This document shows, piece by piece, positions 35,618 to 38,130 of a stretch of 64,000 nt of DNA. The stretch's first letter is position 1. The number at the start of each line of letters is the position of its first letter. Source of the DNA: Fluviicola sp. (GTDB lineage: Bacteria > Bacteroidota > Bacteroidia > Flavobacteriales_D > Crocinitomicaceae); contig JARWZO010000030.1 of the NCBI GenBank assembly GCA_029866325.1, positions 99,193 to 163,192 of the forward strand, in the 5' to 3' direction. A program made the position numbers and the translations under genes. The notes under the pieces are model-generated. The model was given only the letters and a program-made list of their open reading frames with translations, did no database searches and was not told where the DNA came from.

Positions 35618-36589
35618 TTAATTCCAAACAGATTGTTGAACTTGGGAGATGTGTGATTTACGCAAAAGGAACATAGTTAAACGCGATTGTCCGATTCCTC
35701 CACCTATCGTTAAAGGCAATTCACCTTGTAATAATTGCTTATGCCATTGATAATCAAGTCGTTTTTCTTGATCGTGCACACTGAGTTGATAGCGCAAGGC
35801 TTGTTCATCGACCCGAATACCCATGGAGGAAATCTCAAAAGCGCTTTTCAGAATTGGATTCCAAACCAACAAATCGCCGTTTAAACCGCGTAGTCCGTTA
35901 TCCTGAACAGTCGACCAATCATCGTAATCGGGGGAACGTAAATCGTGTGGTTCACCATTGCTAAGCTCGTGTCCTATGCCAATAATAAATACAGCGCCAT
36001 AGTTTTCTGTAATCGCGTTTTCGCGTTCCTTCGGCGATAAATCGGGGTAACGAAGGAGTAATTCTTCCGCATGGATGAAATGAATGTTGGTTGGAAGAAT
36101 CGGCTCGATATCGAAGGCTTCAACGATGTCAATTTCAGTTGATTTGATAGAAGTGTAAATTGCCCTAACTTGCTGTTTCAGGTAATCAATGGTTCGGTTT
36201 TCTACGCGAATCACTTTTTCCCAATCCCATTGATCGACGTACAAACTGTGGATAGAAGAAAGTTCTTCATCAGGACGGAGCGCGCGCATGTCTACCACCA
36301 ATCCGCTTTGTTCGGGTGCTTCAATTTCCGACAAACGAAGGCGTTTCCATTTTGCCAGCGATTGCACAATTTCAAGTGTTTTTCCTGAAAGTGCAGGTGT
36401 TGTAAATGCAACCGGAGATTCAACTCCGTTCAAATCGTCGTTGATTCCTGTTCCTTGTTCAACCACCAGCGGACCTTCCACTTTGATGACATTCAGGTTG
36501 TTTTTCAAGGCGCGTAAAAACCAATCTTTTACCGAACCGATTTGTACTTCGGTTTCATAACTTGTTGTTGCTGTAAGTGTTGTGCTCAT
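35618..36589 (-). CDS. asnA: Aspartate-ammonia ligase (asparagine synthetase A)
   Basis: 323 residues, the usual AsnA length. Class II tRNA-synthetase-like fold with motifs VEGPLVVEQGTGINDDLNGV, WDWEKVI, FIIGIGHEL and GGGIGQSRLTMFLL (motif 3). It makes asparagine from aspartate, ammonia and ATP in the cytoplasm. It is first in a minus-strand operon with pheA 10 bp downstream. A Rho-independent terminator lies 20 bp upstream of the ATG, after a short Asn/Phe/Tyr-rich leader ORF, so expression is likely controlled by transcription attenuation (see 36610-36659 and 36663-36713). Confidence 0.94.
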   Translation of the reverse strand: MSTTLTATTSYETEVQIGSVKDWFLRALKNNLNVIKVEGPLVVEQGTGINDDLNGVESPVAFTTPALSGKTLEIVQSLAKWKRLRLSEIEAPEQSGLVVDMRALRPDEELSSIHSLYVDQWDWEKVIRVENRTIDYLKQQVRAIYTSIKSTEIDIVEAFDIEPILPTNIHFIHAEELLLRYPDLSPKERENAITENYGAVFIIGIGHELSNGEPHDLRSPDYDDWSTVQDNGLRGLNGDLLVWNPILKSAFEISSMGIRVDEQALRYQLSVHDQEKRLDYQWHKQLLQGELPLTIGGGIGQSRLTMFLLRKSHISQVQQSVWN

Positions 36590-36609: not shown

Positions 36610-36659
36610 AAAAAAAAACCTCCCGGATTGGGAGGTTCACGAAATAACAGACCATCCCC
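36610..36659 (-). promoter_or_regulatory. Transcription attenuator: antiterminator arm plus intrinsic terminator
   Basis: On the minus strand the terminator stem AACCTCCC (36637-36630) pairs with GGGAGGTT (36624-36617) around loop AATCC and runs into nine T (36618-36610). Upstream, GGGGATGGT (36659-36651) can pair with the 5' terminator arm ACCTCCC through GGT/ACC and GGGG/TCCC (one G-T wobble) with a 2-nt bulge, which would block the terminator. That arm begins 3 nt after the leader stop codon, so a ribosome at the stop would cover it while one stalled at the Asn/Phe/Tyr codons would not. Terminator firm; antiterminator inferred. Confidence 0.85.
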
Positions 36660-36662
36660 GAT

Positions 36663-36713
36663 TTACATAGAGTTGTAATTAAAAAATGAGTTATTATTTC
36701 TACTGCTAATCAT
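36663..36713 (-). CDS. Asn/Phe/Tyr-rich leader peptide of the asnA-aromatic operon
   Basis: A 16-codon ORF, MISSRNNNSFFNYNSM, ATG at 36713 and TAA at 36665-36663. Asn codons are numbers 6, 7, 8, 12 and 14; Phe 10 and 11; Tyr 13. Eight of nine residues from 6 to 14 are products of the operon that follows (Asn from asnA; Phe and Tyr from pheA, DAHPS/CM and aroA). It lies about 20 nt after the predicted transcription start and just before the attenuator. By analogy with trp/his/phe leader peptides it should couple ribosome stalling to read-through. Translation is not proven. Confidence 0.82.
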   Translation of the reverse strand: MISSRNNNSFFNYNSM

Positions 36714-36739
36714 TGTGTACGTTGTGAAATTATCTGTGA

Positions 36740-36747
36740 CAAATGTA
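36740..36747 (-). promoter_or_regulatory. -7 element (TACATTTG) of the asnA leader transcript
   Basis: Minus-strand TACATTTG; initiation near 36733 puts the leader ATG about 20 nt downstream. -33 TTG is not clear. The stretch from 36748 to the DUF2891 gene end at 36979 holds nothing that I can call. Confidence 0.55.
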
Positions 36748-36978: not shown

Positions 36979-38034
36979 TTACTTCGATAAAAGTGCCAGA
37001 ACAGCAAAACTAGCCAGCCAATGTTCGCCCATATAATCGCCATCGGTAATGTTGGGAAGTGAAGTGTTGAGATGTTGGTCGGCAATGGCAATGAGGTGGC
37101 CAAGTTTTTTATCCGATCGACCTAAACTATACAAACACCAGGATCGGCTGAAATTCAATCCGTCAAGATGTACCAGTTTCCCATCGGTTCTGTCCATTAC
37201 TTTTCCGGGTTCCAATTGAAATTTCTTACTGAACAATTCCGGGAGAAAGGCCTTTAACCACTGTTGAAACTCCGCTTTCGGTAATACGCGACGCATTAAA
37301 TCGGCTTCTTCCAATGCTCCTGATAAAAAATCGTATCCGCTTGGTTCAAAGCTCAAGGGGTAATTTTTGTCTTTTTGGTAAAAATCAATACTGCGTTTGG
37401 TGATGAGTTGTTTGAGTGAATCATTGTTGCTGTGTGCCGCATAATCATACGCAAAAGTGAGTCCGAAAGCGGTATTGATGTGTTCACCCGAGCGAATAGG
37501 ATAAGCTAGTTTTGGTAGGAATGTATAATATTTCCCGCAAATGAGATTGGATAAAGGACGTAGATTCTCAGCGCACGTTTTTCCCAACGGATCGCTCCAA
37601 GTGTCTAGTTCCTGCTGCAATTTCAAGATCCAGGCCCAGCCGTAGGTACGTTCAAACGAATCGTTGTATTTAGTGGTGAAAAAAGCGATTTCAGTTTGAA
37701 TATTCGCGGCCGTGAGTTGCTCTGATAAGACTTTTCGTATAGCTGCAGCGTTTTCAATTGCTGGAAATTGCTTTAAAATGGTGACCATGAGCCAGTGTCC
37801 GTGAACGGAAGAGTGCCAGTCAAAACAACCGTAAAATGCCGGATGCAATGTGGCAGGAGAAAGCAAGGCCGTTGAATCGTTTAATACTTGTCCTAGTTTG
37901 TTGGGGTATTCCTGCTGAGCGCATTTCAATGGTAAAGCAACCAGGCGGGCGGCCTGTTCTGTAGTAAGCTGATGTTGGGCATTGGCGGATTGTATCCACA
38001 ACATCGAACAACCAATCAAAAGCGCTTTCATCAT
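36979..38034 (-). CDS. Exported DUF2891 family protein
   Basis: 351 residues from the ATG at 38034, where a signal peptide begins (MMKALLIGCSMLWIQSANAQ). The family strings HPAFYGCFDWHSSVHGHWLM, RTYGWAWILKLQQEL, GLTFAYDYA and FEPSGYDFLSG are present. DUF2891 proteins have an alpha/alpha-toroid look and are of unknown function. An in-frame ATG at 38061 would add nine polar residues before the signal. It is divergent from dinB (96 bp apart) and ends 231 bp before the asnA promoter. Confidence 0.88.
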   Translation of the reverse strand: MMKALLIGCSMLWIQSANAQHQLTTEQAARLVALPLKCAQQEYPNKLGQVLNDSTALLSPATLHPAFYGCFDWHSSVHGHWLMVTILKQFPAIENAAAIRKVLSEQLTAANIQTEIAFFTTKYNDSFERTYGWAWILKLQQELDTWSDPLGKTCAENLRPLSNLICGKYYTFLPKLAYPIRSGEHINTAFGLTFAYDYAAHSNNDSLKQLITKRSIDFYQKDKNYPLSFEPSGYDFLSGALEEADLMRRVLPKAEFQQWLKAFLPELFSKKFQLEPGKVMDRTDGKLVHLDGLNFSRSWCLYSLGRSDKKLGHLIAIADQHLNTSLPNITDGDYMGEHWLASFAVLALLSK

Positions 38035-38130
38035 CCGTTTTTTGGAGCTAAAATACAGCATTTTGAGTTACCGAATAGCCGAAGGAATCCGTAAATTTGA
38101 CACGTCAGTCTTTGGCTGAATAGCAGTGCG

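What the first reader, a model, noticed from the sequence alone, without database searches (positions are those of the whole stretch)
36610..36747. Transcription attenuator with an Asn/Phe/Tyr-rich leader peptide before asnA
Seen directly (minus strand): a TACATTTG -7 element, then a 16-codon ORF MISSRNNNSFFNYNSM (five Asn, two Phe, one Tyr; residues 6-14 are 8/9 Asn, Phe or Tyr), a stop, a segment (36651-36659) able to pair with the 5' arm of an 8-bp terminator stem, nine T, and asnA 20 bp later. The geometry is right for classical attenuation: a ribosome at the stop codon covers the antiterminator arm and the terminator forms; a ribosome stalled at the Asn/Phe/Tyr codons leaves the arm free and the terminator is blocked. 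Leader-peptide attenuation is known for trp, his, phe, ilv and leu operons. I know of no described asparagine attenuator, nor of one that senses Asn together with Phe/Tyr, and leader peptides are little described in Bacteroidota.
Basis: partly seen in the sequence, partly recalled or inferred. Interest (0 to 1): 0.93.

Follow-up and report, generated by a model that had tools for sequence, protein, structure and literature searches.

The report
Leader switch sensing asparagine and phenylalanine
In front of its genes for making asparagine and phenylalanine, this bacterium carries a 16-codon mini-gene rich in codons for those amino acids, followed by a transcription-stop hairpin; it is predicted to turn the genes on only when one of those amino acids runs short, and our paper searches found no description of such an asparagine-sensing switch.

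Summary
Under a rule that ignores amino acids, 43 of 50 leader ORFs upstream of asnA (three duplicate loci removed) have 4 or more Asn in 10 residues, against 0 of 105 control ORFs. Leader codons track the genes that follow. asnA without pheA: 27% Asn, 11% Phe/Tyr/Trp. Shared asnA-pheA leader: 27% and 26%. pheA with its own leader: 7% and 29%. The antiterminator arm pairs better with its own terminator than with swapped ones, and lies a near-constant ~15 nt after the last clustered Asn codon wherever the stop codon is. The same rule finds His-run leaders at 19 of 19 hisG loci. Best reading: a classical ribosome-mediated attenuator with an undescribed specificity (Asn, or Asn plus aromatic), seen in several Bacteroidota families, often as two attenuators in series. 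Most asnA loci examined lack it (114 of 150 give no Asn-rich ORF under the rule). Ribosome stalling, termination and response to starvation are untested.

The parts
36740..36747 (-). TACATTTG, Bacteroidota-type -7 element (motif name recalled)
   Evidence: TAnnTTTG lies within 90 nt 5' of the leader ATG in 12 of 13 first asnA leaders of the window's family (1.6 expected from shuffles) and in 21 of 39 first asnA leaders overall (3.2 expected), (the 39 include the three duplicates found)
36663..36713 (-). 16-codon leader ORF MISSRNNNSFFNYNSM plus TAA
36672..36698 (-). regulatory codons NNNSFFNYN (residues 6-14)
36691..36701 (-). segment 1: first Asn codons, predicted to pair with GTTATTTC at 36647-36640 (protector hairpin)
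   Evidence: fold; own pairing better than swapped in 24 leaders
36652..36659 (-). antiterminator arm GGGGATGG (segment 2)
36630..36637 (-). terminator 5' arm AACCTCCC (segment 3)
36617..36624 (-). terminator 3' arm GGGAGGTT (segment 4)
36610..36618 (-). nine-T tract of the intrinsic terminator
35618..36589 (-). asnA, aspartate-ammonia ligase
   Evidence: Pfam PF03590, 312 bits
34777..35607 (-). pheA, prephenate dehydratase
   Evidence: Pfam PF00800, 177.7 bits
33738..34862 (-). DAHP synthase / chorismate mutase (ORF as listed; true start probably later, since most relatives align from residue 26-31 on)
   Evidence: Pfam PF00793 and PF01817
32347..33675 (-). aroA, EPSP synthase
   Evidence: Pfam PF00275, 264 bits

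Best explanation
A 16-codon leader ORF rich in Asn, Phe and Tyr codons, an intrinsic-terminator-like hairpin and a competing antiterminator arm stand before the asnA-pheA-aroG/CM-aroA run and likely act as a ribosome-mediated transcription attenuator that would be released when charged Asn-, Phe- or Tyr-tRNA is scarce. Shown on sequence: the ORF, the two mutually exclusive pairings, their covariation, and leader codons that follow the genes behind them. Inferred: with amino acids plentiful the ribosome runs to the stop codon, covers the arm at 36659-36652, and the terminator forms. When it waits at any of the Asn, Phe or Tyr codons the arm is free, pairs with the terminator's 5' arm before the 3' arm is made, and RNA polymerase reads on. 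One leader with both codon types would act as an OR gate. In relatives with two such leaders in series, both would have to open.
For: Blind rule: 43 of 50 ORFs before asnA have 4 or more Asn in 10 residues (duplicates removed; 46 of 53 before removal); 0 of 105 controls. Codons track genes (unique peptides): N fraction 0.265 in asnA without pheA (27), 0.266 in the shared leader (11), 0.067 in pheA leaders (41); FYW fraction 0.109, 0.260, 0.294; Mann-Whitney p from 4.8e-5 to 3.8e-10. Where a gap holds pheA's own leader it is aromatic-rich in 5 of 5 loci examined with one. 0 of 41 pheA leader ORFs have 4 or more Asn in 10; 37 of 41 have 4 or more F/Y/W. Own arm pairing -12.15 against -8.53 kcal/mol swapped in 33 diverse leaders, beyond all 10000 permutations. 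Arm begins median 15 nt (MAD 2) after the last clustered Asn codon but median -14 (MAD 11) from the stop; 34 of 43 within 10-18 nt. Window geometry: each N/F/Y codon in the A site leaves the arm free, the stop covers it (ribosome edge +13 recalled). Both synonyms are used: AAT 217, AAC 65; TTT 63, TTC 64. Positive control hisG 19 of 19; asnB 0 of 29. The genome encodes asparaginyl-tRNA synthetase (576.6 bits).
Against: No expression data. Most asnA loci lack the device: 36 of 150 distinct loci give an Asn-rich ORF, 57 a terminator. In the window's family 6 of 21 asnA loci have no leader. The column-wise antiterminator test is modest: 79.8% of cells paired, 13 of 500 shuffles as high; pairs with two-sided change 55 of 500. 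A first swap test limited to the stretch around the stop was weak for asnA (p 0.015) until the arm was searched inside the ORF too. A leader's own arm is the best or tied-best partner in only 5 of 33. With the whole RNA made, the terminator stays the more stable form even if the arm is free, so a kinetic mechanism is needed. Spacing fails in some leaders (L083, L097 at 37 nt; two below 9 nt). asnA-only leaders still carry some Phe. No clear -33 element.
Confidence: 0.9

Rival explanations
1. A Phe/Tyr attenuator of the pheA type in which the Asn codons are incidental, kept only because AAT/AAC suits an AT-rich genome or forms the segment 1:2 hairpin.
For: pheA leaders are the rule in this order (31 of 37 pheA-first loci give a leader ORF); Asn codons do take part in the predicted segment 1:2 stem.
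Against: pheA leaders are Asn-poor (0 of 41 reach 4 in 10) although they share genome composition. Asn-rich leaders precede asnA with no pheA nearby in Hymenobacteraceae and Mesonia, e.g. MKKSINNNNNNNST. In the sister genome G050, which has pheA at 93% identity and no asnA match, the leader has lost two core Asn (MNSRNNMSFFYYNSM).
Confidence: 0.05
2. The terminator simply ends an upstream transcript and the ORF is chance.
For: The DUF2891 gene lies upstream on the same strand, ending at 36979.
Against: 0 of 105 control ORFs before terminators reach the Asn density; a -7 element lies between that gene and the leader; codon content and spacing are conserved across families.
Confidence: 0.02
3. 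A translation-independent RNA sensor (T-box or other riboswitch), or a protein-bound leader.
For: T-boxes for Asn are known in Firmicutes (PMC2494555, passages seen).
Against: No Rfam family reaches its gathering score in the window; the passages report 0 T-boxes in 7 Bacteroidetes/Chlorobi genomes; the conserved feature is the encoded amino acid with both synonyms used.
Confidence: 0.02
4. A nascent-peptide arrest (not codon hunger) stalls the ribosome in the leader; Asn-Phe runs or the Pro-Pro ends of second leaders are the arrest signal.
For: PP in 7 of 9 gene-near leaders of tandem pairs, 0 of 9 promoter-near ones.
Against: Peptides vary widely in order while amino-acid class tracks the downstream genes; the window's leader has no Pro.
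Confidence: 0.03

Closest known systems
Leader-peptide (ribosome-mediated) attenuators of trp, his, pheA, leu, thr and ilv operons in Enterobacteria (listed in PMC1183508, passage seen)
   Same: Leader ORF with codons for the product's amino acid, competing antiterminator and terminator hairpins, arm covered by a ribosome at or near the stop
   Different: Codons are Asn, or Asn plus Phe/Tyr; genes are asnA and aromatic genes together; in several relatives two leaders with terminators stand in series; host phylum is Bacteroidota
Structured 5' elements at pheA and hisG in Flavobacterium psychrophilum (PMC9723704, section 19 read)
   Same: Same phylum; the text reports strong clues for leader-peptide attenuation at amino-acid operons; pheA and hisG leaders of this kind were found here in relatives
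   Different: asnA and asparagine are not mentioned in that section; its supplementary tables could not be opened
Asn-specific T-boxes of Firmicutes (PMC2494555, passages seen)
   Same: Transcription control by Asn-tRNA charging
   Different: Direct tRNA binding by RNA, no leader peptide; not found in 7 Bacteroidetes/Chlorobi genomes in that study
AsnC control of asnA (recalled from E. coli)
   Same: Also controls asnA
   Different: DNA-binding regulator at initiation. In the window's family 5 of 6 leaderless asnA loci have a divergent neighbour ORF of this look; the 4 of those 5 that were scanned are Lrp/AsnC proteins

Membership tests
Ribosome-mediated (leader-peptide) transcription attenuator | Short ORF with clustered codons for the amino acid made by the downstream genes | tested here: met
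Ribosome-mediated (leader-peptide) transcription attenuator | Intrinsic terminator between the leader and the first gene | tested here: met
   (-14.6 kcal/mol, nine T)
Ribosome-mediated (leader-peptide) transcription attenuator | Mutually exclusive antiterminator supported by covariation | tested here: met
   (33 diverse arms); weaker
Ribosome-mediated (leader-peptide) transcription attenuator | Regulatory codons placed so that a waiting ribosome frees the arm and one at the end covers it | tested here: met
   ribosome edge recalled
Ribosome-mediated (leader-peptide) transcription attenuator | Leader is transcribed and translated | not testable with these tools
   only a -7 motif and conserved codons support it
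Ribosome-mediated (leader-peptide) transcription attenuator | Read-through rises when the amino acid is scarce | not testable with these tools
   needs an experiment
Known Rfam families, including amino-acid leaders and T-box | Covariance-model match at the gathering score | tested here: not met
   0 matches in the 64 kb window

The most novel reading that the evidence does not exclude
Bacteroidota hold a class of asparagine attenuators unknown to the literature searched here: modular leader peptides whose codons are rewritten as genes join or leave the operon. asnA alone gets Asn codons, pheA alone Phe/Tyr codons, and the fused asnA-pheA operon of this window one leader that reads both, an OR gate for asparagine and aromatic hunger; elsewhere two leaders are stacked in series as an AND gate.
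Probability: 0.75. Interest if true: 0.85.

Novelty: new variant of a known kind. Interest (0 to 1): 0.74.

Why it matters
Leader-peptide attenuation is a textbook mechanism known for a short list of amino acids. An asparagine class, and one leader that couples asparagine to aromatic synthesis, would extend that list, give Asn-tRNA charging a regulatory role in Bacteroidota, and offer natural rewiring experiments: gene gained or lost, leader codons changed, attenuator replaced by an AsnC-type regulator. It also yields a simple rule to predict which amino acid an unknown operon answers to.

Tried and rejected
T-box or riboswitch: no Rfam match in the window. Chance ORF before a terminator: rejected by the control set. 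Asn leaders at the other asparagine synthase family: 0 of 29 asnB loci gave a leader ORF (in 4 of the 29 the gene start was doubtful). First swap test around the stop codon was weak for asnA; looking inside the ORF showed that in Hymenobacteraceae the arm lies before the stop. A covariance model was not built, because what is conserved is codons rather than RNA letters. Spread: no Asn-rich leader was found before asnA in the Streptococcus, Haemophilus, Gilliamella, Proteus or Prevotellaceae loci examined.

Rows dropped: of 25 asnA places in the family search, 21 were scanned (L096, L098, L104 and L106 lack the 5' end); of 27 in the class search, 25 (L161 too weak, L082 already counted); L060 and L071 have short upstreams; L157 has an unsure frame. 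Of 50 pheA genomes, 37 loci were used as pheA-first. Of 20 hisG places, 19 were used (a fragment was left out); of the 30 asnB loci laid, 29. Three loci proved to be the same genomes held twice and were removed from the headline counts; other counts still include one or more of them.

Full report
Observation. On the minus strand of the window stand, in order: TACATTTG (36747-36740), a 16-codon ORF MISSRNNNSFFNYNSM (36713-36663 with TAA), the arm GGGGATGG (36659-36652), an 8-bp stem (36637-36630 with 36624-36617), nine T (36618-36610), and asnA from 36589. The gene run is asnA, pheA, DAHP synthase/chorismate mutase, aroA. That they share one transcript is inferred from gaps of 10 nt, an overlap and 62 nt. 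No Rfam family matches the window at its gathering score.

Is it chance? I fixed a rule blind to amino acids: the longest ATG ORF of 8-35 codons whose stop lies 10-45 nt before a terminator-like hairpin, within 330 nt of the gene. Applied to terminators in the window and the 80 named loci on both strands, with the asnA upstream left out, it gave 105 ORFs, none with 4 or more Asn in 10 residues and two with 3. Upstream of asnA it gave 53 ORFs, 46 with 4 or more; after removing three loci held twice, 43 of 50. Four of the 53 are plainly not leaders (L026, L048, L076, L081). Per locus: 150 distinct asnA loci, 57 with a terminator, 42 with such an ORF, 36 with an Asn-rich one. So the device is common in some families and absent in most loci examined.

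Where. asnA occurs in 24 of 240 genomes of the window's family, 26 of 396 of the class sample and 25 of 100 of the Hymenobacteraceae-type family (the family is named after the Hymenobacter loci with the same leader, not from a label on the genomes). Asn-rich leaders were found in the window's family, Hymenobacter and relatives, Mesonia, a Bacteroidales MAG (L049) and two further unnamed families. In 6 of 21 loci of the window's family there is no leader; 5 of these 6 have a divergent AsnC-like ORF, and the 4 of 5 scanned are Lrp/AsnC proteins.

Codons follow genes. Using unique peptides: asnA without pheA (27): 26.5% Asn, 10.9% Phe/Tyr/Trp; shared leader of directly joined asnA-pheA (11): 26.6% and 26.0%; pheA's own leaders (41): 6.7% and 29.4%. 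Mann-Whitney p: shared against pheA for Asn 2.7e-7; shared against asnA-only for aromatics 4.8e-5. These ignore relatedness, and the asnA-only class still holds the four non-leaders. Where asnA and pheA are joined but separated by a gap, the gap has its own aromatic leader in the five loci inspected that have such a gap (L085, L105, L150, L205, L206). In the sister genome G050 (pheA 93% identical, no asnA match) the leader reads MNSRNNMSFFYYNSM, so two core Asn are replaced. One case, but in the expected direction.

Structure. A swap test asks whether each leader's arm pairs better with its own terminator arm than with those of others. For 33 diverse leaders: -12.15 own against -8.53 swapped, best of 10000 permutations -10.15; asnA alone (46) -13.29 against -11.24. 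Own is best or tied in only 5 of 33. An earlier version limited to the stretch around the stop gave p 0.015 for asnA. On a 19-row alignment the terminator helix has 94.7% of cells paired and two-sided changes in 6 of 9 pairs; the antiterminator 79.8% and 4 of 6, with 13 and 55 of 500 shuffles reaching these values. A pair census anchored on the arm is fitted to the pairing and only illustrates it. Segment 1:2 pairing is also better own than swapped (24 leaders, p 0.003).

Geometry. The arm's first paired base is a median 15 nt (MAD 2) from the first base of the last clustered Asn codon, 34 of 43 within 10-18, while its distance to the stop scatters (MAD 11, from -32 to +9; 43 of 46 leaders passed the energy cut-off). 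This is what a waiting ribosome requires and what a chance hairpin would not give. In the window, with a 3' ribosome edge at +13 from the A-site codon (recalled), each Asn, Phe and Tyr codon leaves the arm free, Ser15 and Met16 cover 2 and 5 nt, and the stop covers it all. With the arm free and the 3' arm not yet made, the antiterminator folds (-8.7); with the arm covered the terminator forms (-14.6); with all RNA present the terminator wins in either case, so order of synthesis matters, as in the classical cases.

Controls. The same rule finds leaders with His runs before 19 of 19 hisG loci of relatives, including the window's own genome (MKMTQLFHHHHHLHC), and none before 29 asnB loci. Both synonyms of each codon are used (AAT 217, AAC 65; TTT 63, TTC 64). 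The genome encodes AsnRS, so charging of tRNA-Asn can reflect free asparagine. TAnnTTTG precedes 12 of 13 first leaders in the window's family (1.6 expected) and none of 9 second leaders.

Tandem leaders. Eleven loci have two terminators before asnA. In Mesonia (L023) the second leader is MKKSINNNNNNNST. Second leaders end in Pro-Pro in 7 of 9 cases, first ones in 0 of 9. With no -7 motif before second leaders the two likely act in series.

Literature. Searches of the open library for leader peptide with asparagine, asnA, Asn codons, Bacteroidetes, Flavobacteri and Bacteroidota listed no paper whose title or abstract start describes an asparagine leader peptide; only listings were seen for most. 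PMC9723704 section 19 (read) reports strong clues for leader-peptide attenuation in Flavobacterium psychrophilum and conserved elements at pheA and hisG. PMC2965389 (passages) stated in 2010 that no leader-peptide system was known outside Proteobacteria and Actinobacteria before its own Firmicutes case. PMC2494555 (passages) covers T-boxes. PMC7366714 (passages) mentions leader-peptide-like sORFs in B. thetaiotaomicron. PMC4833913 and PMC1183508 were seen in passages. A 2010 survey by Lopatovskaya and others, seen only as a reference, is not held, so prior mention cannot be excluded.

Verdict. A real, conserved attenuator of the classical kind with an undescribed specificity. The regulation is inferred.

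Noticed in passing
L214 (own genome, G000:C11, before hisG) and L209-L227: His-run leader peptides with terminators before 19 of 19 hisG loci of relatives (own genome: MKMTQLFHHHHHLHC), textbook his attenuators in Bacteroidota.
   Followed up: partly
L016, L049, L086, L143, L150, L205, L206 (second leader before asnA): Gene-near leaders of tandem pairs end in Pro-Pro after the Asn run in 7 of 9 cases, promoter-near ones in 0 of 9. The C-rich codons sit beside the G-rich antiterminator arm; whether this is a protector hairpin or a Pro-Pro pause is unknown.
   Followed up: partly
L099, L101, L102, L103, L105: asnA loci of the same family without a leader have a divergent AsnC-like regulator instead (4 of the 5 scanned by Pfam): two ways to control asnA in one family.
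   Followed up: partly
L108 (G050): Sister genome without asnA keeps the leader and terminator before pheA, with two core Asn codons replaced.
   Followed up: yes
L138, L019, L143 and other first leaders: The Asn codons of many first leaders lie in a small local inverted repeat (CGAATAA...TTATTCG type), seen by eye, possibly a pause hairpin.
   Followed up: no
window 36979-38061: DUF2891 protein gene (446 bits) upstream of the leader on the same strand.
   Followed up: no
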